NCBI RefSeq assembly: GCF_014898055.3
Contig: NW_023605083.1
Location: forward strand, 89,993,721 to 90,057,720
Direction: 5' to 3'
DNA length: 64,000 bases
Source: Talpa occidentalis
Taxonomy: Eukaryota; Chordata; Mammalia; Eulipotyphla; Talpidae
Part shown: positions 17,085 to 55,010 of the stretch, piece by piece
Numbering within the stretch: the stretch's first letter is position 1
How the letters are laid out: each line of letters opens with the position of its first letter
Position numbers and translations under genes: made by a program
The notes under the pieces: generated by a model
Databases searched by the model: none
The model's input: the letters and a program-made list of their open reading frames with translations, nothing else
Told to the model about the DNA's origin: nothing

Positions 17085-17225
17085 AGATGACCCAACTTCA
17101 ACCTGACAAAATAAAGAAGTATAAGGAAGGCCAGAATAAGCCACTGGACTGTGATTCTGGTCACATTCTGGACAAAACCTTGAAAAATCTGGAACCTGCC
17201 CCAAAACAGATGCCTTCTTCATCAA
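17085..17225 (+). CDS. Candidate exon E3 of hypervariable exon array
   Basis: A 141-nt candidate exon (47 codons) between acceptor ...cacctcccag and donor gtgagtag, open in phase 1 and blocked in phase 0 by an early stop. The product is Lys/Gln/Pro-rich and hydrophilic with a single cysteine (PLDCDSGHILDKTLKNLEPA) and no membrane segment or sequon. Intron sequence on both sides is nearly the same as in U1 and U5 to U7, while the exon itself matches none of them. Function unknown. Confidence 0.45.
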
Positions 17226-17947
17226 GTGAGTAGACAAAGTGCCCTCTGCCTGTTGTCAATCTTCTGCTCCCCCACCACCTCTGCCCCCTCGGGTCCCACC
17301 CCTGAACCCTCCTAAACCTTCTTCTAGTCAGTGACTGGGGCCCAGTCTACCCAAGGGGGGATCCCGGACCAGAGGAGGCAGTGCTTACAGGACCCTTCAC
17401 CTGCCAAGTGCATTCCCAGCACCCCATGTGCCTTCACCTGCCCAGGACAGGTGTTCAGAGCCCAGAGAGGAGGAGGCTGACATTCAGAAGGGGCCTGGGA
17501 GGGAGGGGGTAGGTGTCCTGTCAGCTCCCAGGGAGACTCTGGCCTGGCCTCCTTGCTCTCCCCCTTCCCTGCTCCGCCTCAGGGTCCCCATCTGTGACTT
17601 GGGAGAGCATGAGCCTGCGCTGTGGACTGTGTGAAGGTTGAAGAGAGCACCCACGGTAAACACTGGGCACAGATCTCACACTCAGCAGGTGCTCAGTACA
17701 CAGGAGCCCAGATGCTGCTGCTGCTGCTGCTGCTCCAGCTGCCCAGGGGGGCCAAAGGCTCTTCATGCCATAGAGAGACCTGAGGCTCAGAGGGGTGTCA
17801 AGACTCACGGGAGGCGGAGACAGACCCAGAACAGGGTGTGCATTTCCTGGGTCCCAGATCAGGACGTTTGTTCAGCAGTGTCTGTCGGGGGGTCATTTTC
17901 CCGTGAGCACCACGAGAGGTTGGGGAGGTCCTGAAATGGCTTCAGGG

Positions 17948-18401
17948 TGTCACAGGGCAACCCCAATATAAAACGGGTTGCCTGACTGTGGGTCCTCACC
18001 CATGCACTTAAAAAGGGACTAACACTGCAGGCACACACAAAAGGTTAATACAAGTTTTATTTATAAAAGAAAGGGAAAATGAAGACATGAATAACTCAGG
18101 GAGAAAAAGAGGCAAATAAACTCACAAATGCATCCTACCCATTCTGCTGAACTGGAATCCCAATGGCGTGCTGAGAGCTGGCCAAGAGCCAAGACCCTTG
18201 AAGCCAAGAGAGCCCCAAGGCCCACATGTCTGGTTTTATACCAACCCTGGCCACTTAACTCCACCCTCAGGTCCCAGCAACCCTCCCTTTGGGTGATGAT
18301 GGGATTTGGCATTTCCAGTGTCTTGATGGCTTTGGTCTGGAGAGGAGGTGGAGTCCACAAAACCTATTGGAATTAGCTCAGGACATCCTTTCCCCCTAAC
18401 A
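17948..18401 (-). mobile_element. Solo LTR, family D (in U3)
   Basis: A ~450-bp LTR with TG...CA ends and an AATAAAA signal on the minus strand. It is flanked by a short G-run duplication. A copy sits at exactly the equivalent site of unit U7 (55,732-56,479) and a third at 23,882-24,349. Confidence 0.85.
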
Positions 18402-18724
18402 GGGGTGTCTCCTGTGCTCTCTCGGAGACACAAGCCCTGGGAGACAGAGCCATGGAACCCAGAACCACTTTCCTGGGCAGGGATGTCTCCTGCACCCGCT
18501 GCTGCTTGGGGAGATCTCCACCCCGTTCCCTTCTCCCCTGGGCTCACCATGGCTTACCTCTTGACTTTTGGTCCATAACCTTGCCGACCAGTGTGACAGT
18601 CTCCCATTTTGCCTTTCTATTTGTATTTATCTGATGATTAGAGATACTGAGCTTGTTTTCGTGAACTTGGTCATTTGCATATCCGCTTTTCGAAAATGTA
18701 TATTCAGTCTGTTAATGATTTTTT

Positions 18725-18988
18725 TTTTAGATTTATTTTATTTATACAAGAACCAGGGTACAGGCCAGATGTACAGGAGGATGAGAGGATTCACGAGAGA
18801 CAGAGTGGGGAACAGAAAGGGCAGACTGACCGAAGTACACTGCTGAGGGGAGGGGAGCAGCGGGCGAGACAGGAGAGGTCTGTCCGCCATGTGGGTTGCT
18901 CTGCAGCTGATGGGGATCAAATTGGCACTGCAGAAGCTGTAACCGCTTAACAGCACTGCGCTCAACTGCCTGCGCCACCAGGGAGGCC
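18725..18988 (-). mobile_element. tRNA-derived SINE, antisense
   Basis: Antisense SINE within the old L1 scrap of U3. Target duplication ctgttaatgattttt / ctgttactgattttt. Confidence 0.93.
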
Positions 18989-20236
18989 CCTGTTACTGAT
19001 TTTTAATTAGATTATTGAGTTATATTTTATATACATTTTGGACATGAACTCCTAATCTTGTATCTAATTTGAAAATATCTGTGCCCACTCCATGGGTGGC
19101 CTTCTCATTTTGTTGACCCAAAATCCCAGGAGCCCCCTGATGATGTGATACACAAAACATTGGATTTTTGTTCTCAGCCACTAAAATCCTGGGAACCGCT
19201 GGCATGCTTAGAGGGCCCTTTGAAGCTAATGGGTGACTGGGCTGGGCCCTAGAAAACTACAGGGCAAGCCTGGTGACCAGAAAGAAAAAGGTTGGCTTCC
19301 AGGGAGAGGGGTTTAAGAGTCTGAGGATGGGTCCTTTCCATATGTAAGGCAGAAACCATTGTTGTTCTGGAAGAACTGGGTATACAAATAAGGAAGTGAG
19401 GGTAACATTCAAATTCAAATTAGGACTAACATCACCCGACATTAAAATGAGAGTCCAATGCAGCCAAAAGCCAAAAGAGACTCCTCAGTGAGAGGGTGTG
19501 TCCTATTGTCAAGGGCATAGTAGATTGTGTCCTTGGGGAGGACTAGGCCTGCAGGCTGCCTTAAGACAGGTGGGTTGGGGTGCTGTTCTTCTGTTTGTTT
19601 GTTTTCTAAATCTATATTGAGATGACTGTACTTTGTGCTTGACTATTCTTGGACCCCTGAAGATAGGAGCATGGTTGTGTTTATTCTCTTCAAAGTTCAC
19701 AGGGGTGGGGGGGAATAAGGTGGGGGGAAGGGTGAGGGTTACAAGCTTTTCTTGGTAGAAAGGACATCAAGTCCTCATATTTTCTTCACTTGACACCTAG
19801 GGGAGGTTAGAAAAAGAAGAGAGGAGGGAATTGGATAGACTCGAGGCTATTTAACAAAAGGTTGTAGCTATTGCTGCTCAGTGCACGGTTTGATCTAAGG
19901 CTTCCAGGGAGAGGGGCTGAGATTAGCCTCGTCACTGAAGCCAAGGATTTCATCAGTTCTGCCTACGCAATGTAACCTAAATATAGACAGGGTTTTCAGG
20001 CTGGAGTCTCCCTGTTGGTGAAACACGGATGTGCTGGGAGGACCGCACATGGGCAGGGTTCAGGAGCCCCTGCACCTCCCACCCCTCCTGTGCTGCATCC
20101 CTTTGCAGGTACTGAGCCAAACACCTGTATCCTAAATCAGTAAGGAGACTGTTCCTGAGGCCTGAGAGTCAGTCTAGGAAACTTTCAAACCTGAAAGCAT
20201 GCATGGGGTTGTGAGGACTTTGGAATTTGAATGTAG

Positions 20237-20732
20237 TGTTGTAGAAATAAATTCTACTTTTTACCCAGGCAGAGGAAGAACAAGCAGTACTTCAGGAATG
20301 GTGAAGTCAGGAGAAGCTTTATTACTCATGCATGAGGTCCCAGACCTGGGTATAGTCCCGTAAGGTCTGAGTACCTGTTTAAAGACCAAGAGTTCCTTTT
20401 ATACACAACTGTCTCCATATCTGTTACATGGATAACATCGTTTTTCAACAGGCACAACCATTTCAGGCAAAGTCCCCAGACAAGAGGGGCAAGGCAAGGG
20501 GGGAAAGATGCAGGCATTCAGGGATGGCCTTGGAGAGACAGGCCAACTTGGCCGGCTGCCTGACCTCGTAGATTAGAGTGCTGAGTCCCTGCCATGAATC
20601 TTGAAAGGGAAGGAGCTCTTAGGAAGCAAATTTGTTGATTATGCCTGCTTTGGAGAATTCATTACAAATGGGCTGGAAGTCCTGCTGGAATCTTTATTAT
20701 ATTCATTTGCTGAATAATATATTTTCACTTCG
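20237..20732 (-). mobile_element. LTR family B, truncated copy in U3
   Basis: Begins tgttgtagaaataaattc and shares with 23.45-23.88 kb the block around 'aggagaagctttattact'. It lacks the terminal part seen in the copies ending ...ctccatca. The host sequence 'gaatttgaatgtag/gtaggat' is split around it, with a 4-bp gtag duplication. Confidence 0.7.
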
Positions 20733-21106
20733 GTAGGATAAACCAACAGGGTAGACGATCAGGGCACCTCATCGGCAACTGTCATCTGAAGTGGGGAGCA
20801 ATCCTTCAGTACAGCATGAAGCCCTGTTGAAACCCTGGGTCTTGTGCTGAGTCTGGGAACTTCATGTCAGTATTGAACTGAGTTGTAGGACACCCAGCTG
20901 CTGTCCCAGAGAGCTGGTATCAGGAGATTAATAACCCAGACCCCTATTCCAGAATAAATTCTCTACACGTGGAGAGGCAGGGTCCCCCATGGAGGCTCAA
21001 ATTCCTGACATCATCCCTCCTTTAGGGCAGCCCTTTCAGTTCCTGGTGAATCTGACTGTCAGAATGTCCTCCAGTGCATATTGTCCATTAAACATAGAAG
21101 TAATCA

Positions 21107-21370
21107 GGGCCTCCCTGGTGGCACAGTGGTTGAGTGCTGGGTTGCGAAGCTGCCTGTAGCCTCTGCAGCACTGGTTCGATTCCTGGACGCTGGACGAGGG
21201 TCCCACATGGCGCACAGACCTCTCTTGCTACCCGCTCGCTGCTCCCCTCAGCAGTGTACTTCATCAGTCTGGCTATTCTGCTCCCTGCTCTGGCTCTGGT
21301 GGATTCTCTCACCCTCCCCCACTTCTGACTGTACCCAGTGCTTGTATAAATAAATAAATAAATCTTTTTT
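21107..21370 (+). mobile_element. tRNA-derived SINE, sense
   Basis: Sense SINE with target duplication taaacatagaagtaatc / taaaaatagaagtaatc. The uninterrupted target can be read at the same place in U5 and U6. Confidence 0.94.
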
Positions 21371-21879
21371 TAAAAATAGAAGTAATCATTATGCAAAATG
21401 TTTAAAGGTTTCTATGAGCTTTTGCTGAATTTTTACCTCTTGGCTTACCTAAGATGGCCCATTTGACAGGTGAGAAAAGGGAGGCTCAGGGCAAGGAAAC
21501 AGCCACCCAAGGAATCCATGTCCAAGAGAGTCTGAGCTACAGCTCCTCAGGCCTGGCTTCCTCCAGCCCAGGTCAAGCTAGGCACCTCCAGCAAAGATTC
21601 CCCAACAAGCAAGGGTCAGCAGGTTTCACTCTTGCACCCGGTGTCCCCAGCTCTGTTTCAAGAGGGAATGTTGAGATTCCCTGAGAGCTGATCTGCCTGC
21701 AAAGCCCAACCCGGCCTGGAACACACACAGCTCAGTGCCCCTCATACATGGCAGGATTTGCTGTGGGGCTCAGGAAACCCTGAAATCCAGGAGTGGCTGA
21801 AACAACAATCCCTGGGACTTCTGTCATTTCTTTCTGAGAGTTGCATTGCACCCCAAACCTACCTCCCTAGAAAGCCCAC

Positions 21880-23342
21880 AGTCTACATGCAGGTTAGGGG
21901 TGGGGTACTCCTCTGAAGGTGCCTGCATCTGTGTCGTCCCTGCCCAGCATGGTGAGCGCCCTGATTCCACTACTTGGCTTGTCTGTGGAGGTGGCTGATG
22001 GAGGTGCCCTGCTCTGAATCTTTGCCCTTAGCAGGCCTGCCCTGACCCCTCTGCTCCCCTGGCCACCCCCCAGTGTGCTTTCCTCTGGGTGACTTCCTGC
22101 TCTGGCTGCTTGAGGCCTGCATGTTCTTCTTACTTGGTGTCCCAGGACCAGGTGAGGTCTGAGGAGACCTGGGGGTGGAAGCTCTGAGCTCGATCCCTGA
22201 AACCCCCACCTCCTGTCAGCATCAAGCTCAAGGTTGGGACCCCAGAGTCCAGATCCAGGAGAGGGAAGACTCAGAGGACACAGATCAGTAGGTGTCACCC
22301 CACCCCCCTCACTCTCCTGATGTATTTTTGTAGGGTGCAGGGTCCTGGTATTCACTCTGGGAATGGTTTCACACCAGAGCTTACCGTTGAGTGGCACATG
22401 GCGAGTTTCCTGCTGAATTTCTCCGTGAGACAGAGATGTTAGTTATATTTAAAGAACAGGTTTATTTGGGAAAGGGATAGGTTTGCTGAGAGAGGCCTGC
22501 ATGGTTGCAGGCAGGTGACCTTGAGGAGAGTGGCCTTTGCTAAGGGAGGTCAATGAAGAGAAGTCCCGGCAGGTACAGGTCAAGGCCAGGAAGGGAGGCT
22601 GCTGCTCTGCAGAGGAGAGAGGTGGTAAGAAGAGGCACCTATATGGTCACAGGTGGGCAGTGGGAGTGCTGCCTTGAGCCTGTGCAGAGCCTGAACTGAT
22701 ATAGTCCTTTTCCCTTTGGGAGGGGTCACTCCTCCTTGGAGTGGCCTGCTAGTTGCTGATGTTGGGTAATAGGCAAAACCAGGAGCAGATCAGAGATTCC
22801 AGGATGGGGCCTAATCGCCATATCTTTACCCTCAGGTCTGTGCTCCACTCCCTATAGCATCTGATTCTGCTTGGGTCTCATGCCTGTGATAAGGTGCTGA
22901 CACCTAAGGGTCCGACCTCTACAGCTGGGTTAATGGTCGACCCCCACCTCCTTGTGTGAGTCAGGTGTGAGGCCTCCTTTCCAGTTTTTCTATCACTAGA
23001 TCACTCCCATCCCATCAAGGATCCTGAATGATGCCACCCAATTCCCTGAACTTCAGGTCTCCTGACCTTTTCCAGTGTGTCCCACTCACCTGGGCTCCTC
23101 CTTACGATGGCTTTTCTACCACTCCCCTTTGCCTACCTTCCCCAAAACCACCTACTAGCAGGTTCCCTGTGGTGTGAAAATCTGGGCTCTGAGTGAGTGC
23201 AGGTAGGAGCTTACCAGGAGAGGAATGACCCCAATGGAGTCTTGCATTGGGAGGTGGTGGGCCCATGGGGTGCACTGTTCCCTGCCTGCCTGATGTTCCT
23301 CACCTCCACTGCCCACCCTTCCCAGTGAAGGTGCCCTGTCTC
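21880..23342 (+). repeat. Tandem unit U4, left part
   Basis: Unit start through the exon acceptor at 23,324-23,325. The first 17 nt of the exon (from 23,326) remain open in phase 1, and then ERV-derived sequence begins. An LTR E (about 22,317-22,999) interrupts the conserved segment. The rest of the unit resumes 18.9 kb downstream at 42,261, after a nested insertion complex. Confidence 0.8.
22317..22999 (-). mobile_element. Solo LTR, family E
   Basis: About 680 bp, similar to 25.86-26.53 kb (shared 'gagacagagatgttagttata' and 'caggtttatt' blocks). The surrounding unit sequence is split, with a likely tcactc-type duplication on both sides. Confidence 0.65.
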
Positions 23343-24590
23343 AACAATTGTTAGACAAGCAGGTGGACAAATTGTTTCATAATAGACAAACTGTTTGGTG
23401 GGCTACAAGGCCATTTCACATGGAAAAGGGGAGTTCAAGAAGTGGGGCAAGGGGATGCAGTACCTGGAGATTATTGAAAAGAAACAAGCCTGTCTTGTAG
23501 GAACGGTGAGGTCAGGAGAAGCTTTATTACTCATGTATGAGGTCCCAGACCTGGGTAGCCCCGTAAGGTCTGAGCACCGGTTTAAAGACCAAGGGTTCCT
23601 TTTATACACAACTGTCTCCATATCTGTTACATTGATAGCATCGTTTTTCCGCAGGCACAACCATTTGTGGCAAAGTCCCCAGACAAGGGGGGCAAGGCAA
23701 GGGGCGAAAGATGCAGGCATTCAGGGATGGCCTTGGAGAGACAGGCCAGCTGGCTGGCTGCCCGACCCTGTAGATAAGAGTGCTGAGGCCCTGCCATGAA
23801 TCTTGAAAGGGAAGGAGCTGTAAGTGAACAAACTTGTTAATTATGCCTGAATTGGGATGTTCATGGCACCTGGGCTGGAAGTGTTACAGGGCAGCCCTGA
23901 TATAAAACGGGTGGCCTGACGGTGGGTCCTCACCCGCGCACTTAAAAGGGACTTATTAATACTCCACTGCAGGCACACACAAAACGTTAATAAAAGGTTT
24001 ATTTACAAGGGAAAGGGAAATGAGGAAATGTACAACTCAGGGAGAAAATAGGGAAATAAAGTCTTTAATGCGTCCTACCCAATCCGCCAACCTGGAAACC
24101 CAGTGGCACTCTCAGAGCTGGCCGCGAGCCATGAGCTGTGAAGCCAAGAGGTAAGAGAGCCCCCAAGGCCCACGTGTCTGGTTTTATACCAAACCTGGCT
24201 GCTTAACGCCACCCTCAGGTTCCAGCAACCCTCCCTTTGGTGGTGATGGGATTTGTCTTTCCCAAAGTCTTGATGGCTTTGGTCTGGAGTGGGGGTGCAG
24301 TCCACAAAGCCTGTATGGGATTAGCTCAGGACATCCTTTCCCCCTAACAGAAGTTCTGCTGGAATCTTTATTATATTCATTTGCTAATAATGTGTTTTTG
24401 CTTCATTGCCATCTGACCCCCTTCCTTTGGAATGCAGCTGTGTTTGAATATGGGTATAGAGACCAGGCCTTGAATCCTTCAAAGAGAATTTGCAAGTAAG
24501 CAAATTTGCTAGTTGTGTCTGGATTAGAATGCTTTTCTGAGGGGAACTTTTACTTTATCTATTTGCTTAGTGTTTTTTTTTTCTCCATCA
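23343..24590 (-). mobile_element. 3' LTR (family B) of a minus-strand ERV
   Basis: LTR B sequence ending ...tttctccatca at 24,590, followed at once by a polypurine tract (AAAGGGTGGAAA on the minus strand, 24,591-24,603). This marks the right end as the LTR start of a minus-oriented provirus. A family D LTR splits it at 23,882-24,349. The outermost left ~100 bp look rearranged relative to other copies. Confidence 0.7.
23882..24349 (-). mobile_element. Solo LTR, family D, inside LTR B
   Basis: TGTTACAGGG...CTAACA with 4-bp duplication gaag on both sides (23,878-23,881 and 24,350-24,353). A 4-bp duplication is typical of class I ERVs. Confidence 0.88.
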
Positions 24591-24603
24591 TTTCCACCCT
24601 TTG

Positions 24604-25650
24604 ATGCCTTTGTGAGTTATTTTCTCATAAGCCATCATCTTCAGAGGTGACAGGATTAATGCCCAGTGGCAGGTATGGGGTGAGTACATACTGGAGTTGT
24701 CTTTGATATTTGAGTAAATATGAAGTTGGTAGGCATATCAAGTAAACAGGGGCCAACGATAAGAACCAAGAAGAATAATATCAAGGGTCCTTTAAAGGGT
24801 GCCAGCCGCAGGAACCATGGGGTGGGCGAAGGCATCCCACCAGGTTGACTGATGCAGGGTGCCCCATCTATGATTAATTCGATCTTGGAGATGGGTGTTT
24901 CCTGAACTACCCCAGATTCATTTGCATAGAAACCACATTCTTCTTGTAAATACAGGCAGATACCTCTGTGGGCAGCAGTGAAGAGAGCACGTCCTCACCA
25001 GTTTTGGAGTACCAGAGCTGCCAAGGAATCAAGTTGTTGATGGTGGGTTAGGGCTGATTTTAGGAAAGCATCAAAATCTGACTTGAGTTGGCCTCCCAGT
25101 GCATTATAATGGATCCGAGACACTCTTACTCCAGCGGCTCCCACGGCTGCCCCAGCTGCAGCTAGCAGACCCCCCTACAACAGGGATGGCAAAAGGGGCT
25201 CTTTTTTCACCGTGAGGAGGCTTCCATATCGAAAGCGCATCCCTCCCAGTCCAAACAGACAGGTTAGGCACCAGATTAACAATGAAGCATTATCGCTTGT
25301 ATGGTGTAATACACTGATACACTCCCTGAGCACAGGCCAGGTAGGTGCCCTTTGAGGCTAAGGTCCTGGAGGTGTGAGCCAGAGGATTTGTGGCATTTCC
25401 CCATAGAGTCACAACACCTAGGACAGGATTCAAGGAGGAGTTGAGTGAGATCTCCGGAGAGAACGAGCCCAGGTCGAGTATGACTCTGTATTACTGGACA
25501 GGACCTGGTTTCATGCAGATCCAGCGATCTGAAGTGAGGGCCATGTGGGAGAGGTTGAGAGCCAAGTGCGAAGCACTGATCATGCCTGTTAACTGGGACA
25601 CAGACATTGTTGGGAGAAATCAGAGGAATCCCAGGATGGTGGGAGACCAG
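24604..25650 (-). pseudogene. Broken ERV env (surface end and transmembrane subunit)
   Basis: Minus-strand frames, with stops, read through a surface-subunit C-terminal stretch (VTLWGNATNPLAHTS), a hydrophobic Ala/Gly-rich fusion-peptide-like segment, the heptad segment and a CX6C motif (CLYLQEEC) where the gammaretroviral group has CX6CC. A hydrophobic membrane segment follows. Adjacent to the LTR B polypurine tract, it is the envelope of that provirus. Stops and frameshifts make it inactive. At its right end it meets a second, plus-oriented copy head to head. Confidence 0.75.
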
Positions 25651-25860
25651 AGATCTCCTTTCACTCTTGTGGGCCTCCTGTTAAGCTGGGTACAAATGGC
25701 CCCCTTTGCCATCCTGCTTGTAGGGGTTCTGCTAGCCCCATCTGGGGCAGCCATGGGAGCGGGGTGAGTGTCTCGGATCCATTATAATGCACTGGATGGC
25801 CAACTGAAGTCAGAGTTTGATGCTTTCATAAAATCAGCCCTAATTGTTGTCGTTTTTGGA
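25651..25860 (+). pseudogene. Inverted second copy of ERV env fusion-peptide region
   Basis: Plus-strand sequence reads the same env region as the neighbouring minus copy (SRIHYNAL followed by the heptad segment), with a stop immediately before it. The copy is short and passes directly into an LTR of family E. It may therefore be the 3' end of a separate plus-oriented env piece or one arm of an inversion. Confidence 0.7.
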
Positions 25861-26530
25861 GTCTGTGGGTTTGGAGTGTGGGGTCCTTGGGTTCCCTCTG
25901 GGAAAGGTTTCACCACAGATCCCCTTTCAGCAATACGTGGCAAGTTTCCCAGGCGAGTTTCTCCTTGAGACAGAGATATTAGTTATACTTAAAGGACAGG
26001 TTTATTAGGAAAAGGGACAGAGGAATAAAGGATGCTTGCATAGAAAAAAGCATGCAGGAAGAGCTGCCCCAGAAGGGACAGGTTTGCTAAGAGAGGCCTA
26101 CATGGCTGCAGACCTTGATAGGTCACGGGCAGGCAGGAAGCTGCTGCCCTGTGGAGGGAGAGAGTTGGTGAAAAGAGGCACCTGCAGTCACAGGTGGGCA
26201 GAGGGATTGCTGCCGGAGCCAATGCAGAGAATGCACGGATATAGTCTTCTGTTTGGGAGGGGTCACTCCTTGTGAGTTGGTTGCTAAGTTTGGATAACTG
26301 TGCAGGTTTTGAAAGGGACAGGAGATTCTACACGGGGGTTCAATCTCCATATCTTTACCTTTGGGGTCCATGTTGGGCTCAATCTCCATATCTATAGGCT
26401 GTGCCTGGAGATACCAGTGTGGACCAGAACTGGGGATGCTAGTGTAGACTGCCAGAATGGCTATGCTAATGTCTTTTGCTCCCACCTCCTTGTGTGAGCC
26501 AGATTTCTGGTCTTGTGGCACTTCCTTTTT
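25861..26530 (-). mobile_element. LTR family E, second copy
   Basis: Shares blocks with 22.32-23.0 kb in the same orientation ('gagacagagatattagttata', 'acaggtttattagga'), with the AATAAA signal on the minus strand. Ends in a T-rich run near 26.53 kb. It directly joins the plus env fragment, so the junction is recombinant. Confidence 0.6.
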
Positions 26531-26964
26531 TTAGTTTTTTCTTTTTCTATTCTTGTCCTCCATCAGTCAGTAAGACAACTTCTGGTATAAGAGGGGCTGA
26601 GTGGGTTCCCCCACCCCCACCCCAGCATCTAGGGGGGAGGCGAAGGGGTAGGGGGAGAGGGAGAGGAAAAGGAAGAAGTGGACTAATCTGGAGGGGATGG
26701 GGGCTGATGGGGAGGGAGCCGAGAGAGATGCTGTTAGGGTGGAGGGGCCCAGCTAAGAGGATGGCAGGAGATTTTTGTTTGACACTACGCTTGAACAAGT
26801 GAGGTTGCTCAGTGAGGATCTCAATCCAGACCTGAATATAAATACTTTGATCAGGATGTCCCAGTTTTCTGAATATTACTCCCTATAGGCTGTAGGGAGG
26901 TCAAGTGAACTCTAAGAGGGCCATCCAACATTGAAACTAGGCCAGTCTACCTCACGGGATTATT
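26531..26964. other. Purine-rich tract and unassigned ERV-like sequence
   Basis: A G/A-rich low-complexity run (about 26.62-26.72 kb) is followed by sequence I cannot assign. No protein-like frame. Confidence 0.4.
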
Positions 26965-27229
26965 TTTCAATTTTTTTTTTTAAGATTTATTTATTTATGC
27001 ATATAGAACTGTGGTACAGGTCAGAGGTGTGGGCAGTGAGAGGATTCACCAGAGACAGAGTGAGGAACAAAACAGGCAGATCTACTGAAATAACACTGCT
27101 GAGGGGAGCAGTCAGGAGAGGTCTGCTGTGCCATGTGGGTTGCTCCCTGGCCAGGGATTGAACTTGTGCTGCAGTGGCTGTGGATAACTTCATAGGTTGC
27201 ATCCCTACACTTTGTGCCACCAGGGAGAC
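26965..27229 (-). mobile_element. tRNA-derived SINE, antisense
   Basis: Antisense SINE with target duplication ctacctcacgggatt / ctacctcacagaatt. Confidence 0.92.
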
Positions 27230-27249
27230 CCTACCTCACAGAATTTTTA

Positions 27250-27525
27250 TTTTTTTTTAATTTTTTTTAAAGATTTATTTATTTATTTATGCAAGCACTG
27301 GGTACAGTCAGAAGCACAGGAGGGTGAAAGAATCCACCAGAGTCAGGGCAGGGAGCAGAACAGGCAGACCGATGAAATATACTGCTGAAGGGAGCAGGGG
27401 GCGTAGCAGGTGAGGTCTGCGTGCCATGTGGGACCCTCACTGGCAGCCGGGGATCAAACGGACACGGCAGAGGCTGCAGGCAGCTTCGCAGCCCAGCACT
27501 CAACCGCTGCGCCACCGGGAAGGCA
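27250..27525 (-). mobile_element. tRNA-derived SINE, antisense, adjacent copy
   Basis: A second antisense SINE whose target (ctcacagaattttta, 27,235-27,249 and 27,526-27,540) overlaps the duplication made by the first SINE. It therefore landed at the edge of that insertion later. Confidence 0.94.
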
Positions 27526-44699: not shown

Positions 44700-44940
44700 T
44701 GCCGATGACCAGCCTTGGCAAAATGTCATGTCAGGAGTTCCTGAAAGGATGAGACGGTGTCGGCGAAAACTTAAGGGCTAAGGGGAAGGGGATGAGGTAA
44801 TGAGAAAATACTTTCACCTCATTGAGTGTCAGTGTCTCCTCACTACCTCATCCCCTTCCCCTTAACCCTTAAGTTTTCACCGATGCCATCTCATCCTTTC
44901 AGGGACTCCTGACACAACATTTTGCTGAGGCTGGTCGTCG
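44700..44940. repeat. Near-perfect inverted repeat (hairpin) in the LTR
   Basis: The arms 44,700-44,804 and about 44,839-44,940 are reverse complements with roughly 90% identity by eye, separated by some 34 bp. It looks like two LTR pieces joined head to head. Confidence 0.85.
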
Positions 44941-44944
44941 ACAA

Positions 44945-44962
44945 GTGAGCCCGAACAGGGAC
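44945..44962 (+). other. Primer-binding site, tRNA-Lys3 type
   Basis: Reads gtgagcccgaacagggac, matching the Lys3 primer site (TGGCGCCCGAACAGGGAC) apart from a few 5' positions. It lies directly after the LTR-like sequence and before the gag remnant. Confidence 0.75.
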
Positions 44963-45106
44963 CTGAAAGGTAAGCTTTCTTTCCTTTACGGGGACAGCTA
45001 GGATCTGCTCATAGGGTAGGGCGCATACCTCCCTGTGGAGGAAAAACAGGGGAGAGAGGAGCAGTAATCAAGAACTGGACAAGTGGGTGTCATATTTTGA
45101 GAAGTT

Positions 45107-45340
45107 ATGAGCCATATCCAGTCTAGGGAAAGAGGACTCTTTGTTGATATAATTAAGTATACACTTGCTAAGAGAGGCCTTACGACCTCTCATGCACAAT
45201 TGGCTAGTTTCCTAAATTTTGTTGAAATGTGTTGTCCCTGGTTCCCCAGGGATGGGAGTTTGAATAAAAAAACATGGAGCAAGTTGGGGACTGCCTCTGG
45301 TCTCAGCAAGCAGCTGCCTGGACTTTTTCTCTGGTGTTGA
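45107..45340 (+). pseudogene. gag matrix remnant, class II ERV
   Basis: A plus-strand frame of 77 codons contains the betaretroviral matrix pattern CCPWFPRDGSLNKKTW and ends shortly after. It begins about 145 nt after the primer site, a normal leader spacing. The copy at 1,490-1,813 ends at a similar place, so the truncation is a family property. Confidence 0.65.
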
Positions 45341-45349
45341 GATCACTGG

Positions 45350-46240
45350 CAGGTCTCTACTGCCTTTCTGCTGTGGGGACTGGACTCTCCTTTTATCCAC
45401 GTTAAAAAAATTATTTTGGTTCATTCTAGGAAAAAAGTTCTATTTCCCTGTGTTTTTCTGATTATAAAGTCTAGATTGTATAAGGTAAAAACTGCTGAGT
45501 TACTTTGGACTTGCTGACAAGCTATACAAAATTCTTATTGGTTGAATAAAAGCTTTTAAATTTACTTATTGGACCTGTAAAAGGTTAAGTTTTTTGTTAA
45601 AACTAATTAACCTGGTAAAATATGAAGTGGTAACACAGACATTTTTGAGCTAAATTCTAAACCTCAGATTTTAATAAAAGCCTAAAAATAGGCAAACTGT
45701 AAAAATTTACTTCTTCTATTCTCAAGATAAGAGTGTTCTTTTATGTTTTAAAAAATGCTCATTCTCAGTGAGATAAAGTGTTGACAACCTAAAGCCAAAA
45801 AATCATTTCTTAAAAATATAAATTCAAAAAATATTTTCTTACCTAAAAAAGGTTAGTAAAAACTGCCATGACTGCTATGGTCTTGAGCCCAAGGTCTTTG
45901 GTAGTAATTAAGATTAGACACTTATTCTATGTGCAGATTTTAGCTTTTAACTCATTAAAAACCTCAGTATCTTCACACATAGTGGTAAAACTATCTTTTA
46001 AAAAATATACACATGGCCAAAACTTTAAATGTATATCAAGAGATCTCTATGTCTGTTTGTGTCTGTTTTTGTGTTTTTGTTTTGTTTTGTTTTTTACCTC
46101 TGGAGTACTAATATAAACGGTGCCTATATAAGTTCTCATAAAAACAAATTTTAAGATCATGATCCAAAATTTTTGATATACAGAATCTAGTTCAAATTTT
46201 ATGATATAATTCAAAGCATATATGCATTACAATTTCGCCT
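45350..46240 (+). mobile_element. AT-rich ERV interior replacing gag-pol-env
   Basis: About 0.9 kb of highly A+T-rich sequence with no coding potential. The same blocks occur inverted at 1-1,360 and directly at 2,640-2,872/3,603-3,800, so it is a shared family interior rather than random decay. Confidence 0.65.
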
Positions 46241-46544
46241 AGGCCGTCTCATCCTCTCAGGGACTCCTGACACAACATTTTGCTGAGGCTGGTCTTTGGC
46301 ACCACTCCCTAGGGCTCCTCCTTATGGCTTTTCTAGCACTCCCTTCTCCCTCCTCCCCCAGCACCACCTACTAGCAGGTTCCCTGGGGTGTGAAAAGCTG
46401 GGCTGTGAGTGAGTGCTGGGTAGGAGCTTACCAGGAAAGGAATGATCCCAATGGAGTCTTGTGTTTGGGAGGTGGTGGGGCCAAGGGGGACCACTGTTTC
46501 CTGCCTGCCTGATGATCCTCACCTCCACTGCCCACCATTTCCAG

Positions 46545-46760
46545 TTGTGATCCCAAGTGTCCGCCGCATATTTGCTAAGGAACGTGAAGACCAGCAGAAG
46601 CAGAAATCAAACAAAGAAAGTGAGAACCACAATGATTCTGATCTCCAGCAACATAGACAGTCTTCTCCTTTGAGTGGGGCTGACAAGGTGAAGTCAGGTG
46701 ACCCACTGGCAACCTTGAGAAGGCTGGTTGATGACCTAAAACTTATGGATACTAAATCAT
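46545..46760 (+). CDS. Candidate exon E5 of hypervariable exon array
   Basis: The longest cassette: 216 nt (72 codons) between acceptor ...catttccag and donor gtgagtac, open in phase 1 only. The product is hydrophilic and rich in Lys, Glu, Gln, Asp and Ser, with a Gln/Lys stretch (EREDQQKQKSNKESEN) and a C-terminal helix-like segment (DPLATLRRLVDDLKLMD). The latter broadly recalls the helical end of E6 and E7. One base differs from the donor consensus shared by the other units. No cysteine or membrane segment. Family unknown. Confidence 0.5.
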
Positions 46761-49700
46761 GTGAGTACAAATTGCCCTCTGCCTGTTTTCAATCTTCATT
46801 CCCCCACCACCTCTGCCCACCTTGGGCCCCACCCCTATCTTCCTAAACCTTCTTCTTGTCAGTGATTGAGGCCCACTCTATCCAAGGGTAGATCTGGGAC
46901 CAGAGGAGGCAGCTCTTACAGGACACTTCATCTGCCAAGTACATTCCCAGTACCCCATGGTCCCTCACCTGCTCAGAGCCCAGAGAGGAGGAGGCTGACA
47001 TTCGCAAGGGCCCTGGGAGGAAGGGGGTAGGTGTCCTGTCAGCTCCCAGGAGAATCTGGCCTGGCCTCCTGGCTCTCGCCCTTCCCTGCTCCGCCTCAGG
47101 GTCCCTATCTGTACATGGGAGAGCAAGAGCCTGCGCTGTGGACTGTGTGAGGGTGAAGAGACCCCACGGTAAACACTCGGCACAGATCTCACACCCAGCA
47201 GCTGCTCAGTACACAGGAGCCCAGATGCTACTGCTGCTGCTGTGCTGCTATTGCTCCAGCAGAACCGGGGGGCGGAGTTTCTTCCTGCCACAGGGAGACC
47301 TGAGGCTAAGAGAGGGGTCGGGACTCACAAGGGGAGGTGGAGACAGACCCAGGAAAGTATGTACATTTCCTGGGTCCCAGATCAGGACATTTGTCCAGCA
47401 GTGTCTGTCTGGGTGTTTTTCCCCTGAGAATTAGGAGAGATTTGGGAAGGGGCCTGCAATGGCTGTGTGTGTATGGGGTGGGGGGAGTTGGGGGGTGTCT
47501 CCTGGGCTCTCTTGGAGACACAAGCACTGGGAGACAGGGCCATGGAACCCAGAACCACATTCCTGGGCAGGGATGTCTCCTGCACTGGGTGCTGCTTTGA
47601 GAGATCCCCACCCAGTTCCTTCATTCCCGCCCCTCACCATTGCTTTCCTCTTGAATTTTGGTCATAATCTTGCAGATGAGGGTGACATGGCCTTCCATTT
47701 CCCCTTTTGATCTGCATTTATCTGATGATTAGAGCCACTGAGCACCTTTTGTGAACTTGGTCATGGGCATATCTCGTTTTAGAAAATGTCTCTTCAAGTC
47801 TGTTATCAATATTTAATTGTAGCACAAATTTATATTCTTTATATATTTTGGGTGAACTCCTTATATGATATATTATTTGTACATATTTTTGTCCACTCCA
47901 TGGGTTGCATTTTCATTTTGTTGACCCAAAATCCCAGGAATGACCTTTTGATACAATACACAAAATTATTTGGTTTTTGACGTCAGCTGCTAAAGCACCT
48001 GGAATCTCAGGAGTGCTAAGAGGGCCCCGTTACGCTAAAGGATGACCAAGCTGGGCCTAGGAAATTTCAGGTCAGGCCTGGTGACCAGAAAGACAAAGGT
48101 TGGCTTCCAGAGAGAGGGGCTAAGTGTTTGAGGATGGGTCCTTTCCTCATGTAAGGCAGAACCCACTCTTGTTCTGGAAGAACTGGGTATACAATTAAGG
48201 AAGTAAGGTTAACAAATCCAAATTCAAATTAGGACTAATATCACCCAACATTAAAATGAGAGTAGAATGCTGCTCAAAGCCAAAAGAGACTCCTCAGTGA
48301 GAGGGTGTGTCCTGTTGTCAATGATATAGTAGATTGTGTCCCTGGGGAGAACTAGGCCTGCAGGCTGCCTTAAGACAGGTGGGTTGGGGTTTTTTCTTTT
48401 GTTTGTTCATTCCTTGGTTTGTTTGTTCTTTAGCTAAATCCTTACTGAGATGACTGTACTCTGCACTACAGGCTATTGCTGGGTCTCTGAAGATGATGAT
48501 GTGGGTGTGTTTATTCTTATCAAAGTTTAGGGGAGGTTAAAAGCATATATTCGTAGAAAGAACAGCAAGTCCTGATATTGTCTTCATGGCACACCGAGGG
48601 AAGGGTAGAAAAAGAAGAGAGAGGACGAAATTGCATAGACTGGAGTACATTTAACAAAAGATTTCAGATATTACTGTTCAGTGCACAGTTTTATCTCAGA
48701 CTTCCAGGGAGAGGGGCTGAGATTAGGTTCCTCACTAAATCAACCCTGCCCATGCAATGAAACCTAAAAATAGAAAGCCTTTTTCAGGCTGGAGTTTCCT
48801 TGATGGTGGAACACAGAGTGGCTGGAAGAGGCGCTCCTAGACAGATCTCAGGAGCCCCTGTACCCTCCACCCCTCACCCTGTGCTGAGTCCCTTTGCTGG
48901 TCCTGAGCCAGAAACCTCCACCCTAAACCAGTAAGGAGACTGCTCCTGAGTCCTGCGAGTCAGTCTAGGAAACTATCAAACCAAAATGGATTATTTGTGG
49001 GTTTATGAGGTCTTTGGAATTTGTCTGCAGGATGAACAAACAGGGTAGATAATCAGGGCACCTCACTGGCGACTGCCATCTGAAGTGGGGAGTGGTCTTC
49101 TGTACTGGATAAACCCCTTGAAACCCTGGGTCTTGTGCTGAGTCTGGGGAGTTCATGTCAATATTGAATTGAGTTGTAGGACACCAGCTGGTGTTCCAGA
49201 GAGCTGGAGTCAGGAGATAAAAACCCAAACCCCTCTTCCAGAATAAATTCTCTACACGTGGAGAGGTAGGGTCCCCCATGGAGGCTCAAATACCTGACAT
49301 CATCACTTCTACAGGGCAGCACTACCAGCGCCTGGTGAATCAGACTGTCAGAATGTCCTCCAGTGTGTATTGCCCATGAAAAATAGAAGTAATGATTATA
49401 TAAAATGTTCAAAGGTTTCTATGAGCTTTTGCTGAAATTTTACCTCCTGGCTTACTTAAGATGGCCCATTTGACAGGTGAGCAAAGTGAGACTCAGGGCA
49501 ATGAATCAGCCACCCAAGGAGTCAATATCCAAGTGAGTCTGAGCTGCAGCTCCTCAGGCCTGGCTATTCAGCCCATGTCAAGCCAGGCAATTCCAGAAAT
49601 GATTCCCCAACAGGCAGCAGTCAACAGGTGTCACTCTTGCACCAGTATCCCCAGATCGGCTTCATGAGGAAAAGTTGAGATTCCCGAGTCCTGAGCTGCC

Positions 49701-50651
49701 TGAAAAGCGCACCCGGCCTGGAACACACACAGCTCAGTGCCCCTCATACATGGCAGGATTTGCAATGGGGCTCAGGAAACCCTGAAATCCAGGAGTAGCT
49801 GAAACAATGATACCTGGGCCTGCTGTATTTTCCTTCCGAGAGCTGCATTGCACCCCAAACCTACTTCCCTAGAAATCCCACACTCTCCATGCAGGTTAGA
49901 GGCAGGGCATCCCTCTGAAGGTGCCTGCACCTGTGTGATTCCTGCCCAAAATTGTGAGCACCCTGATTCTACTCCCTGGCCCATCTGTAGAGGTGGCTGA
50001 TGTGGGTACCCTGCTCTGAATCTTTGCCCTTAGCAGCCCTGCCCTGACCCTCCACTCTCCTGGCCAAACCCCAGTGTGCTTTCCTCTGGGTGACTTCCTA
50101 CTCTGGCTGCTTGAGGCCTGTTCTTCTCAGTTGGTGTCCCAGGGCCAGGCAAGGTCTGAGGAGACCTAGGGTGGATACTCTGAGATCAACCCCCTAAACT
50201 CCTACCTCCTGTCAGTATCCAGGCCAAGGCTGGGGCCCCAGAGTCCAGGTCCAGGAGAGGGAAGACTCAGAGGACACATATCAGTGGGTGTCACCCCACC
50301 CCACTCACCCTCCCACCCCATCTAAATGAGGCCCACATTGCCCCCCTGGGACCCCAGGTCTCCTGACCTTGTCCAGTGTCTCCCACTTCCCTGGGCCCCT
50401 CCTTACTATGGCTTTTCTACCCCTCCCCTTTGCCTTCCTCCCCCAACACCACCTACTAGCAGGTTCCCTGGGGTGTGAAAAGCTGGGCTCTGAGTGAGTG
50501 CTGGGCAGGTGCTTACCAGGAGAGGAATGATCCAATGGAGTCTTGCTTTGGGGGATGGTGGGATGGGGCCAAAGGTGACCACTTCCCTGCCTGCCTGATG
50601 TTCTTCCCATCCCACCACCGCCTTCCCATCCCACTGATTTCCTGGGTCCAG

Positions 50652-50840
50652 CTGAAGCAATTGCACACCCTGAGGACCATCCACAGCTGTCATCGCACTC
50701 GACCCAAACGGATGAGAAACTCAAACAGTCCAAGTTCCTGCAGCTTGATATGGAAGCACTCAGTCTTGTGTTGGACCTCTCACGTGACCCGGATAAGAAA
50801 AAAATGGCTCATGTCCTAGAAGTTGTAATTTCTATAGCAA
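50652..50840 (+). CDS. Candidate exon E6 of hypervariable exon array
   Basis: 189 nt (63 codons) between acceptor ...cctgggtccag and donor gtgagtag, open in phase 1. The product starts EAIAHPEDHPQ and ends with an amphipathic helix (LDMEALSLVLDL...VLEVVIS). It is clearly related to E7 (same length, same termini, many substitutions) but not to E1, E3 or E5. The leucine pattern loosely recalls the helical part of adhesion-GPCR GAIN domains; this is only a suggestion and I do not rely on it. Confidence 0.5.
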
Positions 50841-51323
50841 GTGAGTAGACAAAGTGCCCGCTGCCTGGTGTCACTCTTCTCTCCCCCCACCACCTCAGCC
50901 CCCTCGGCCCCACCCCTGAACTCTCCTAGACCTTCTTCTAGTCAGTGACTGGGGCCCACTCTATCCAAGGGGGGATCCTGGACCAGAGGAGGCAGCACTT
51001 ACAGGACCCTTCACCTGCCAAGTGCATTCCCAGCATCCCATGTGCCCTCACTTGCCCAGGAGGGGTGCTAGCAGCCCAGAGAGGAGGAGGCTGACATTCA
51101 GAGGGGCCCTGGGAGGCAGCCAATAGTGGTCTTGTCTGGCTTCCAAGCAGACACTGGCCTGGCCTCCTGGCTCTCCCCTTTCCCTGCTCCACCTCAGGGA
51201 CCCCATCTGTGACATGGGAGAGCAGCAGCCTGCGCTGTGGACTGTGTGAGGGTGAAGAGACCCCACGGGAAACACTCGGCACAGATCTCACACCCAGCAG
51301 GTGCTCGGTACACAGGAACCCGG

Positions 51324-51326
<3 letters not shown>

Positions 51327-51361
<35 letters not shown>
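51327..51361 (+). repeat. Expanded (CTG)n tract in U6
   Basis: About twelve CTG units here against roughly five to seven at the equivalent place in U1, U3, U5 and U7. It lies in the intronic MIR block, outside the candidate exon. Confidence 0.95.
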
Positions 51362-52022
51362 ATTGCTCCAGCAGCTCCAGGGGGCAGAGGCTCTTCACAC
51401 CACAGGGAGACCTGAGGCTCAGAGAGGGATCTGACTCACACAGGGAGGTGGAGACAGACCCAGGACAGGGTGTACATTTCCTGGGTCCCAGATCAGCACG
51501 TTTGTCCAGTGTCTGTCTGGGTGTCGTTTTCCCGTGAGCGCCAGGAGAGGTTGAGGAGTGGCCTGCAATAGCTTCCGGGGTGTCTCCTGCCCTCTCTTGG
51601 AGACACAGGCACTGGGAGACAGAGCCATGGAAACCAGATCCACGTTCCTGGGCAGGGATGTCTCCTGCACCCGCTGCTGCTTTGAGAGATCCCCACCCCA
51701 ATCCCTCCTCCCCGCAGCTCACCATTGCTTACCTCTTGACTTTTGTTCATAATCTTCCAGACAGTGTTGACAGGGTCTCCCATTTTGCCTTTTGATTTGC
51801 ATTTACCTGATGATTAGAGATACTGAGCACATTTTCCTGAACTTGGTCATTTGCATATCTGCTTTTAGACAATGTCTCTTCAATTTATTGATTTTTAATT
51901 GGATTATTGATTTGTCTTCTTTGTATATTTTAAAAATGAACTCTTTATCTGGTATATAGTATGCAAATATTTTTGCCCTCTCCTTGTGCTGTCTTCTCCT
52001 TTGTTGACCCAAAATCCCAGGA

Positions 52023-52095
52023 AGCTTTGCACAATGGCAGTATTGTAGCCAATGAGGTTTATCCGAGGTGTGATTACTGCTAATTGAAAACTTTT
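52023..52095 (+). pseudogene. RNU4: 3'-truncated U4 snRNA retropseudogene
   Basis: The first ~73 nt of U4 snRNA are recognisable from AGCTTTGC onwards, including the conserved GCAGTATtGTAGCCAATGAG segment, with few changes. It stops after 'aaaactttt'. A perfect 15-bp target duplication, cccaaaatcccagga, lies at 52,008-52,022 and 52,096-52,110. There is no A-tail, as is usual for snRNA fragments retroposed by L1. It is absent at the same place in the other units, so it inserted after the array formed. Not expected to be functional, since the Sm site and 3' stem are missing. Confidence 0.95.
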
Positions 52096-54821
52096 CCCAA
52101 AATCCCAGGAGCCCCCTTATGATGTAATACACAAAAATATTTGGTTTGCGACCTCAGGTGCTAAAACCCTGGGAATTTCAGGAGCACTCAGAGGGTCCTT
52201 TTATGCTAAAGGATGACTGAGCTGGGCCCTAGGAAACTACAGGGCAATCCTGGTGACCAGAAAGACAAAGGTTGGCTTCTGGGGAGGGGCTCAGATTTTG
52301 AGGATGGATCCTTTCCACATGAAAGGCAGAAACCAGTCTCCTTCTGGAAGAACTTGGTATACAAATAGGGAAGTATGGTTAACATTCAAATTCAAATTAG
52401 GACTAATATCACCAAATACTAAATTGAGAGTAGAATGCAGCCAAAAGCCAAAAAAGAATCCTCAGTGAGAGGGTGTGTCCTGTTGTCAATGATAAAAGTA
52501 CATTGTGTCCCTGGGGAGGACTAGGCCTCCAGGCTGCCTTAAGACAAGTGGGTTTTGTGTTTGTGTTTTTGTTTTTGTTTTTGTTTTGCTAAATCTTTAT
52601 TGAGATAACTATACTTTGCACTGTAGTCTGTTGCTGAATCTTGGAAGATGATATTGTGGGTGTGTTTGTTGTTGTCAAAGTTCACAGCAGGTTAAAAGCA
52701 TATCTTGGTAGAAAGGACACCAAGTCCTGATATTGTCTTCACTTCACACCTAGGGAAGGATAGAAAAAGAAGAGAGAGGAGGAATTGCATAGAATCGAGT
52801 ATATTTAACAAAGATTTCAGATGTTACTGTTCAGTGCACAGTTTTATCTCAGGCTTCCAGGGAGAGGGACTGAGATGAGGCTCCTACTAAAGCCAAGGAT
52901 TTCATCAATCCTGCCCATGCAATGAAATCTAAAAAGAGAAAGCCTTTTCAGGCTGGAGTTTCCTTGTTGGTGAAACAGGGAAGTGCTGGAAGGGACATAC
53001 CTGGACAGGGCTTAGGAGCCCCTGTACCCCCAACCCCTCACCCTGTGCTGCGTCCCTTTGTGGGTCCTGGGCCAGAAACCTGCATCTTAAACCAGTAAGG
53101 AGACTGCTCCTGAGTCCTGTGAGTCAGTCTAGGAAACTATCAAACTTGAAAGCATTTGTGGGGTTGTGAGAAATTTGGAATTTGTAGGATGAACAAACAG
53201 GGTGGATAATCAGGGCACCTCATTGGCAACTGCCATCTGCAGTGAGGAGTGGTCCTGTGTACAGGATGAACCCCTTGAAACCCTGGGTCTTGTGCTGAGT
53301 CTGGGAAGTTCATGTCAATATTGAATTGAGTTGTAGGACACCCAGCTGGTGTTCCAGAGAGCTGGAGTCAGGAGATAAAAACCCAAACCTCTGTTCCAGA
53401 ATAAACTTCTGTATACATAGAGACTTAGGGTCCCTGGTAGAGGCTCAAATTCCTGACATCATCCCTTCTACAGGGCAGCACTACCAGCTCCGGTGAATCT
53501 GACTGTCAGAATGTCCTCCAGTGTGTATTGTCCATGAAAAATAGAAATAATCATTATATGAAATGTTTAAAGGTTTCTATCAGCTTTTGCTGATTTTTAC
53601 GTTTTGGCTTACCTAAGATGGCAGTTTGACAGGTGAGCAAAGGGAGGCTCAGGGCAGTGAATCACCCACCCAGAGAGTCAGTGTCCAAGCAAGTCTGAGC
53701 TGCAACTCCTCAGGCCTGGTTTCCTCAATCCCATGTGAAGCCAGGCACCTCCAGAAACGATTCCCCCCAACAGGCAAGAGTCAATAGGTATCACTCTCAC
53801 ACCCAGTGTCCCCAGCTCTGCTTCGGGAGGGAAGGTTGAGAGATACTGAGTGCTGAGCTGCCTGCAAAGCCCACTCAGCCTGGAACACACAAAGCTCAGC
53901 GCCCCTCATACATGGCAGGATTTGCAATGGGACTCAGGAAACTCTGAAATCCAGAGTGGCTGAAACAATGATCCCTGGGCCTACTGTCGTTTCCTTCTGA
54001 GAGCTGCACTGCACCCCAAACCTACCTCCCTAGAAAGCCCACACTCTACATTAGGTTAGGGGTGGGGGCTCCCCTCTGAAAGTGCCTGCACCTGTGTGAT
54101 CCCTGCCCAACCTGGTGAGCGCCCTGATTCCACTCCCTGGCCTGTCTGTGGAGGTGGCTGATGTGGGTGCCCTGCTCTGAATCTTTGCCCTTAGCAGGCC
54201 TGCCCTGACCCCTCCACTCCCCTGGCCACACCCCAGTGTGCTTTCCTCTGGGTGACGTCCTGCTCTGGCTGCTTGAGGCCTGTTCTTCTCAGTTGGTGTC
54301 CCAGGGCCAGGCAAGGTCTGAGGAGACCTGGGGGTGGATGCTCTGAGATCGACCCCCTGAAACCCCCACCTCCTGTCAGTATCAATGCCAAGGCTGGGAC
54401 CCCAGAGTCCAGGTCCAGGAGAGGGAAGACTCAGAGGACACAGATCAGTGGTGTCACCCCAACCCCTTACCCTCCCACCCCATCAGGGATCCTGAATGAG
54501 GCCCCCATCACTCCCCTGCGACCCCAGGTCTCCTGACCTTGTCCAGTGTTTCCCATCCCCTGGGCTCCTCCTTACTATGGCTTTTCTAGCACTCCGTTCT
54601 CCTTCCTCCCCCAACACCACCTACTAGCAGGTTCCCTGGGGTGTGAAAAGCTGGGCTCTGAGTGAGTGCTGGGTAGGAGCTTACCAGGAGGGGAATGATC
54701 CCAGTGGAGTCTTCCCTTCTGGCATGGTGGGATGGGGCCAAGGGTGAGCACTTTCCTGCCTGCCTGATGTTCCTCCTGTCCCACCACCCCCTTCCCCTCC
54801 CACTGAACTCTCTGGGTCCAG

Positions 54822-55010
54822 CTGAAGCAATTGCGCACCATGAAGACCACCCACAGCAGTCATTGCACTTGACCCAAACGGGTGAGAAACTCAAAAAGTC
54901 CGAGGTCCTGCGGCTTGATATGGAAGCAATCATCTCTAAATTGGACCGTGTAGATGACCTGGATACGGAACAATTGCTTGAAACCCTAGAAGTTAATATT
55001 TCTACATCAA
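54822..55010 (+). CDS. Candidate exon E7 of hypervariable exon array
   Basis: 189 nt (63 codons), acceptor ...tctgggtccag, donor gtgagtag, open in phase 1. The product has a polar N-terminal half (HHEDHPQQSLHLTQTGEK) and an amphipathic helical C-terminal half (DMEAIISKLDRVDDLDTEQL) ending LETLEVNISTSS, which contains an NIS N-glycosylation sequon. It is closest to E6. A secreted or membrane-anchored protein would be consistent with the sequon. No homologue recognised. Confidence 0.5.

What the first reader, a model, noticed from the sequence alone, without database searches (positions are those of the whole stretch)
17085..55010. Exons differ completely while the introns around them are nearly identical
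Splice-site neighbourhoods (about 80 nt upstream and beyond 100 nt downstream) are close to identical between units, but E1, E3 and E5 share almost nothing with each other or with E6/E7 beyond the last few bases. Exon sequence therefore changes faster than intron, as in snake-venom gene families under diversifying selection, or exons are being exchanged between units. This is the most likely 'undescribed system' here.
Basis: partly seen in the sequence, partly recalled or inferred. Interest (0 to 1): 0.88.

Follow-up and report, generated by a model that had tools for sequence, protein, structure and literature searches.

The report
Fast-changing exons between slow-changing introns
A mammal-like stretch of DNA carries a row of copied gene pieces whose protein-coding parts have changed several times faster than the non-coding DNA around them, a sign that natural selection keeps rewriting this protein, as it does in some known pregnancy, defence and venom proteins.

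Summary
Units of about 4 kb are repeated head to tail (6.35-57.8 kb). Seven carry one small + strand exon each, all multiples of three and open in phase 1-1. Between type I exons (A, C, F, G, H) 22-66% of aligned sites differ; flanking intron mostly differs by 10-20%, so "nearly identical" is too strong.

In the one gap-free pair, G-H, the exon differs at 42/189 sites, the flanks at 170/1661 (p = 9e-6). dN is 0.30, dS 0.17 (dN>dS alone: bootstrap 0.085). Non-synonymous change exceeds intron change (p = 1.6e-6); synonymous change does not (p = 0.44).

Eight of 10 type I pairs keep detectable homology, so wholesale swapping is unlikely. Units are mosaic about 2 kb from the exon, but no tract was shown to stop at a splice site.

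Best reading: serially duplicated, frame-neutral exons of a probably secreted protein under diversifying selection, working like ruminant TKDP N-domain exons or trappin exon 2. Membership is unproven: no Kunitz domain was found in the window, and protein-database and own-genome searches could not be made. The pattern is known in kind; the gene is unidentified.

The parts
6354..57823 (+). Tandem array of about 4-kb units, interrupted by SINE, LTR and L1-like/ERV-like insertions
   Evidence: self-comparison
7078..7200 (+). Exon A (type I), 123 nt, phase 1-1, open
12197..12265 (+). Exon B (type II, upstream flank Y), 69 nt, phase 1-1 with its own GTAAGT donor; the shared donor 16 nt further on would break the phase
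17085..17225 (+). Exon C (type I), 141 nt, phase 1-1, open
23326..23354 (+). Relic D: upstream flank and acceptor kept, in-frame TAG, no downstream flank
   Evidence: read; flank search
42264..42356 (+). Exon E (type II), 93 nt, phase 1-1, open; in-frame ATG at 42323 followed by a hydrophobic run
46545..46760 (+). Exon F (type I), 216 nt, phase 1-1, open
50652..50840 (+). Exon G (type I), 189 nt, phase 1-1, open; acceptor moved about 24 nt downstream of the position used in A, C, F
54822..55010 (+). Exon H (type I), 189 nt, phase 1-1, open; same moved acceptor as G
54066..54821 (+). Upstream flank L of exon H, shared with A, C, D, F and G
55011..55734 (+). Downstream flank R of exon H, shared with A, B, C, E, F and G
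11959..12196 (+). Upstream flank Y of exon B; 86% identical over 210 nt to the flank of E at 42041-42250; a 70% copy without an R flank at 24406-24581
56914..57823 (+). Far downstream intron block of unit H, which groups with units E and F and not with G
   Evidence: tree and AU test

Best explanation
The array is a run of serially duplicated symmetric (phase 1-1) coding exons, each in about 4 kb of its own intron, of one gene or two neighbouring genes for a probably secreted protein. SHOWN by sequence: all seven exons are open and frame-neutral; intron differs at one broad level along the unit; type I exons differ much more, with lengths that vary by whole codons and, in G and H, a shifted acceptor; in G-H the excess is amino-acid-changing. 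INFERRED: diversifying selection on the protein drives this, and because every exon begins and ends in phase 1, exons can be gained, resized, lost or skipped without breaking the frame. On this reading the introns are not specially conserved; they show the neutral background. INFERRED, weak: E is a first coding exon, whose ATG opens a hydrophobic stretch that runs on into F and could be a signal peptide.
For: 7 of 7 exons open and multiples of three. Exon versus flank in G-H p = 9e-6. Non-synonymous versus flank p = 1.6e-6, synonymous versus flank p = 0.44; codons 36-62 dN 0.64, dS 0.20. Codon positions 1, 2, 3 changed 16, 18, 8 times of 62. Exon difference 0.44-0.66 in the other 9 type I pairs. 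The exon is the only phase-1 candidate found in at least 4 units. In 8 of 10 type I pairs residual homology. Only 1 of 8 ATG-to-phase-1-donor candidates on the + strand is hydrophobic, and it is in exon E.
Against: Only one pair (G-H) can be aligned without gaps; dN>dS by itself is not significant (0.085), and the split at codon 35 was seen after looking. No expression or cross-species data. Acceptor scores are low in G and H (0.4 and -1.7). B and E show no significant homology to the other exons. Neither a shared start exon nor a terminal exon was found. B does not read like a signal peptide.
Confidence: 0.6

Rival explanations
1. Exons change at an ordinary rate, but introns are kept alike by gene conversion or unequal crossing-over among units, which the exons escape because they are too different to pair.
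For: Units are mosaic: far downstream block of H groups with E/F and G+H is rejected (AU p = 0.0005), while the upstream flank places H with G; C and H share an LTR at one site that A, B, F and G lack. Flank trees are weakly resolved.
Against: dS in G-H is not significantly above flank divergence (p = 0.44), dN is (p = 1.6e-6). But dS rests on 41.7 sites with 95% range 0.06-0.34, and in the other pairs it cannot be measured.
Confidence: 0.15
2. Segment switching: pieces of exon are replaced by unrelated sequence or exchanged between units with borders at splice sites, as proposed for viperid three-finger toxins.
For: Most exon pairs are at 0.44-0.66 difference; B and E join another upstream flank (Y) to the common downstream flank at the exon; no significant homology of B or E to other exons.
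Against: 8 of 10 type I pairs keep homology; G-H changes are scattered substitutions without gaps; no splice-site breakpoint is supported; no donor for any exon piece was found in the window.
Confidence: 0.11
3. It is a TKDP gene or a direct relative: these are N-domain exons, and the signal and Kunitz exons lie partly or wholly outside the window. This is compatible with the best explanation and is a question of membership.
For: [quoted passage not shown] phase-1 acceptors are typical of the Kunitz/WFDC locus genes (PMC3209443 passages).
Against: No Kunitz domain in the window (regex; tblastn best E = 1). TKDPs are described as restricted to ruminants (PMC1817651 abstract), and recalled ruminant SINEs match the window only in stretches of up to 51 nt. 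TKDP1 packs 12 exons into 16.8 kb (from coordinates); here exons lie 4 kb or more apart. No TKDP sequence could be compared.
Confidence: 0.15
4. The stretches are not exons; they are non-functional, freely varying spacers or relics.
For: No expression data; low acceptor scores in some; D is a relic.
Against: Unconstrained sequence should differ like the intron, about 10-20%, not 22-66%, and should not be open in the same phase in 7 of 7.
Confidence: 0.06

Closest known systems
Ruminant trophoblast Kunitz domain proteins (TKDP1-5), N-domain exons
   Same: Serially duplicated small exons inside a gene, in variable number, coding for sequence without known relatives (passages of PMC3426482)
   Different: No Kunitz exon in this window; exons 4 kb or more apart; species apparently not a ruminant; sequence similarity to TKDP exons untested
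Semenogelin/WFDC-type genes with a rapidly evolving exon 2 ('REST' genes)
   Same: One hypervariable exon entered in phase 1, between conserved neighbouring sequence; acceptor shifts proposed as a source of change (passages of PMC3209443)
   Different: There exon 2 holds the rest of the protein and its stop; here all seven exons run into a donor without a stop and are repeated in series
Trappin (elafin-type) multigenes
   Same: Coding exon diverges 3.1 times (cow) to 4.4 times (armadillo) more than non-coding regions among paralogs (abstract and passages of PMC2831891)
   Different: Trappin exon 2 codes for TGS and WAP domains; no Pfam family reaches its cut-off in the seven exons
Viperid three-finger toxin genes (ASSET)
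   Same: Intron segments over 85% identical while exon segments differ (passages of PMC2474615)
   Different: There cysteines are conserved and segments are proposed to be switched; here G-H shows scattered substitutions and type I exons hold 1 Cys in 281 residues

Membership tests
TKDP | C-terminal Kunitz domain exon | tested here: inconclusive
   None in the 64-kb window (regex; tblastn with a recalled BPTI, best E = 1), but the gene may extend beyond it
TKDP | One or more N-domain exons between signal and Kunitz exons | tested here: inconclusive
   Serial small exons are present; a possible signal start lies in exon E; comparison with TKDP exons was not possible
TKDP | Location between PIGT and WFDC2 | not testable with these tools
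   Sequence outside the window was not reached (genome search did not complete)
TKDP | Expression in trophoblast | not testable with these tools
   No RNA data
Semenogelin/WFDC-type 'REST' genes | Hypervariable exon 2 entered in phase 1 | tested here: met
   Phase 1 entry in 7 of 7 exons
[quoted passage not shown]
   7 of 7 exons have no stop in phase 1 and end at a GT donor
Trappin genes | WAP domain in the fast exon | tested here: not met
   No Pfam family above its cut-off in the seven exon peptides; the rest of the window was not scanned for WAP
Class: coding region evolving faster than its introns | Exon divergence significantly above intron divergence, with non-synonymous excess | tested here: met
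   G-H: p = 9e-6 and 1.6e-6; the other type I pairs agree in divergence, without a codon test

The most novel reading that the evidence does not exclude
A single mammalian gene, outside the described ruminant TKDPs, with an array of seven or more frame-neutral hypervariable exons that can be skipped or combined freely, so that exon choice and rapid amino-acid change together diversify one secreted protein in a lineage where no such gene is described.
Probability: 0.15. Interest if true: 0.65.

Novelty: new member of a known kind. Interest (0 to 1): 0.42.

Why it matters
Exons that outrun their introns mark proteins in a conflict, such as mother and conceptus, sperm and egg, or host and parasite. 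A tandem array within one genome carries a neutral yardstick (intron) around every exon, so selection can be measured inside a single sequence. It could also show whether TKDP-like exon arrays arose outside ruminants.

Tried and rejected
Kunitz domain in the window: none by six-frame regex or tblastn (best E = 1). Other exons shared by units: the scan took symmetric pieces of 41-330 nt that map to unit G, in at least 4 units; besides the known exon it gave one phase-0 candidate in 4 units with scattered ends and modest site scores, which I rejected. Asymmetric internal and terminal exons were not scanned. Earlier forms of that scan printed nothing; one search showed that mapping limits were the reason. 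No hydrophobic start candidate is shared by more than two units. The leucine run near 55500 comes from a CTG repeat in R and was rejected as a signal peptide by eye. Relatives: viral-contig scan with exon H, none; PDB with the joined exons, best E = 0.2; Pfam none above cut-off. Structure of exon H on a five-row alignment: mean pLDDT 64.7, pTM 0.28, helices only; too weak, so no fold search was made. Conversion tracts bounded by splice sites: not supported. Naming the species from its SINE: six recalled consensus stretches match the window only over up to 51 nt; my early guess of a camelid (notebook) is not supported by PMC8605555, whose passages give camelid SINEs as about 2% of the genome and nearly all MIR. 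Promoter scan of the Y flank with a bacterial pattern: no use.

Literature: the searches listed no paper that by title or abstract start describes this array; apart from the papers cited with passages or abstract, I saw listings only, and the library is PubMed Central open-licence papers.
Full report
What is there. A self-comparison shows blocks of about 4 kb repeated head to tail on the + strand from about 6.35 to 57.8 kb, interrupted by SINEs, an LTR and L1-like or ERV-like pieces (the L1 and ERV labels are my reading of the ORFs). A full unit holds an upstream flank (L, about 0.7 kb), a short divergent stretch, a downstream flank (R, about 1 kb) and about 2.5 kb of further shared non-coding sequence. 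The divergent stretch begins after an AG and ends before GTGAGT (GTAAGT in B).

Exons. Seven stretches fit: A 7078-7200, B 12197-12265, C 17085-17225, E 42264-42356, F 46545-46760, G 50652-50840, H 54822-55010. All seven are multiples of three and open in phase 1 on both sides. In six this is the only open frame; in B a second frame is open too. The joint chance of openness in dinucleotide shuffles is 6e-9. B needs its own GTAAGT donor; the common donor 16 nt further on would break the phase. D, from about 23326, keeps L and an acceptor but has an in-frame TAG (read) and no R. Splice-site scores, from recalled tables, are modest: with strict limits only E passes at both ends, and acceptors of G and H score 0.4 and -1.7. 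A scan for symmetric exon-like pieces present in at least 4 units found only this position in phase 1 (in A, C, F, G, H), none in phase 2, and one phase-0 candidate with scattered ends. The unit thus appears to carry one symmetric exon, as expected of exon duplication inside a gene more than of whole small genes. B and E have another upstream flank, Y (86% alike over 210 nt), with a weaker copy at 24406-24581 that lacks R, and form a second class.

Rates. R differs by 0.10-0.19 between units over about 500 nt (up to 0.21 in the shorter comparisons with E). L differs by 0.10-0.20 over 320 nt without F, whose L is interrupted and gave 0.25-0.31. By distance from the exon, pooled differences are 0.154, 0.078 and 0.179 going 300 nt upstream and 0.142, 0.187, 0.141, 0.122 and 0.104 going 500 nt downstream. 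More distant blocks differ by 0.065-0.21. There is no specially conserved collar at the splice sites, and 'nearly identical' overstates the flanks. Type I exons differ by 0.22 (G-H), 0.44 (A-C), 0.46-0.47 (F-H, F-G) and 0.52-0.66 in the other six pairs.

Kind of change. Only G-H aligns without gaps. Exon 42/189, flanks 170/1661 (Fisher 9e-6); codon positions 1, 2, 3 changed 16, 18, 8 times of 62. dN is 0.30 (0.19-0.43), dS 0.17 (0.06-0.34), ratio 1.76; bootstrap P(dN<=dS) = 0.085, so dN>dS alone is not significant. Against the flanks non-synonymous change is in excess (p = 1.6e-6) and synonymous change is not (p = 0.44). The excess sits in codons 36-62 (dN 0.64, dS 0.20); codons 1-35 look neutral (0.12, 0.15). 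That split was noticed after looking and is not a pre-planned test. Lengths of type I exons are 123, 141, 216, 189 and 189 nt, always whole codons. In G and H the position of the acceptor used in A, C and F reads CAC instead of CAG, and an acceptor about 24 nt further on takes over.

Swapped or rewritten? In global alignments against 200 codon shuffles, 8 of 10 type I pairs had 0 or 1 shuffles reaching the score; C-G had 19 and C-H 7. None of the 11 pairs with B or E was significant (12-167 of 200). The shuffles keep only the outermost bases, so shared bases at the exon ends help the true pairs a little. Type I exons are thus mostly recognisable relatives, rewritten and resized. Exon peptides found nothing else in the window beyond the G-H match and two weak matches (E = 0.019 on the other strand inside a SINE, and 0.19).

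Exchange between units exists, but away from the exon. The upstream flank places H with G (UFBoot 95; H+F rejected, AU p = 0.0008); without F the support is 86 and C+H is not rejected (p = 0.13). About 1.9 kb downstream of the exon, H belongs with E and F (UFBoot 100) and G+H is rejected (AU p = 0.0005). C and H share an LTR at one site that A, B, F and G lack. In the first 300 columns of R G+H is not rejected (p = 0.29). Conversion tracts ending at splice sites are neither shown nor excluded.

How it works (inferred). The protein is probably secreted and in conflict with a moving partner, so that amino-acid changes are favoured, while phase 1-1 borders let exons be copied, resized or dropped without loss of frame. 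Exon E has an ATG at 42323 with A at -3 and reads MILILVSLLIP, continuing into F as IVIPS; it is the only hydrophobic one of 8 ATG-to-phase-1-donor candidates on the + strand. That would make E the first coding exon of a gene E-F-G-H, with B opening another (B-C), although B reads less like a signal peptide. This step is weak. Type I peptides are rich in L, S, K, D, E and Q, with 1 Cys in 281 residues.

What is known. TKDP genes of ruminants have added N-domain exons between signal and Kunitz exons (passages of PMC3426482; abstract of PMC1817651). Semenogelin-type genes have a fast exon 2 entered in phase 1 (passages of PMC3209443). Trappin coding exons outrun non-coding regions 3.1-fold in cow and 4.4-fold in armadillo (abstract and passages of PMC2831891). 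[quoted passage not shown] The array behaves like these. It does not meet a defining feature of two of them (stop in exon 2; WAP domain, tested on the exons only). For TKDP the test is open, because the Kunitz exon, the locus and TKDP sequences lie outside what could be searched. The main SINE (14 places) is not one I can name, so the species, and with it the TKDP question, stays open.

Verdict. The phenomenon is known; the array is a probable new example whose gene is unidentified.

Noticed in passing
52023-52194 (+): Rfam match to U4 spliceosomal RNA (71.7 bits) inside unit G; 52023-52095 is missing from the unit alignments, so it is probably an inserted U4 pseudogene.
   Followed up: partly
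14 places, e.g. 28986-29265 (-), 5175-5451 (-), 55868-56075 (+): An abundant tRNA-type SINE, 270-nt consensus from 13 copies, with a head like several laurasiatherian SINEs and a tail like the recalled carnivore one; family and species not named.
   Followed up: partly
17951-18402 and 55735-56480; also 23881-24350: LTR-like element (TG...CA, about 450 nt) at the same site in units C and H, split by a SINE in H, plus a further copy in another setting.
   Followed up: partly
about 29.4-29.95, 35.4-35.7 and 59.1-62.7 kb (-): Broken retroviral env-like and pol-like reading frames on the minus strand (my reading).
   Followed up: no
31482-34613 and 36455-40092: Two L1-like stretches about 80-85% identical to each other (label from reading the ORFs).
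   Followed up: no
11308-11905 and 13255-13849: A 600-nt pair at 90% identity on both sides of exon B, not matched in other units at that length.
   Followed up: no
20294-20680 and 23499-23882: A 387-nt pair at 89% identity, in units C and D only; origin not determined.
   Followed up: no
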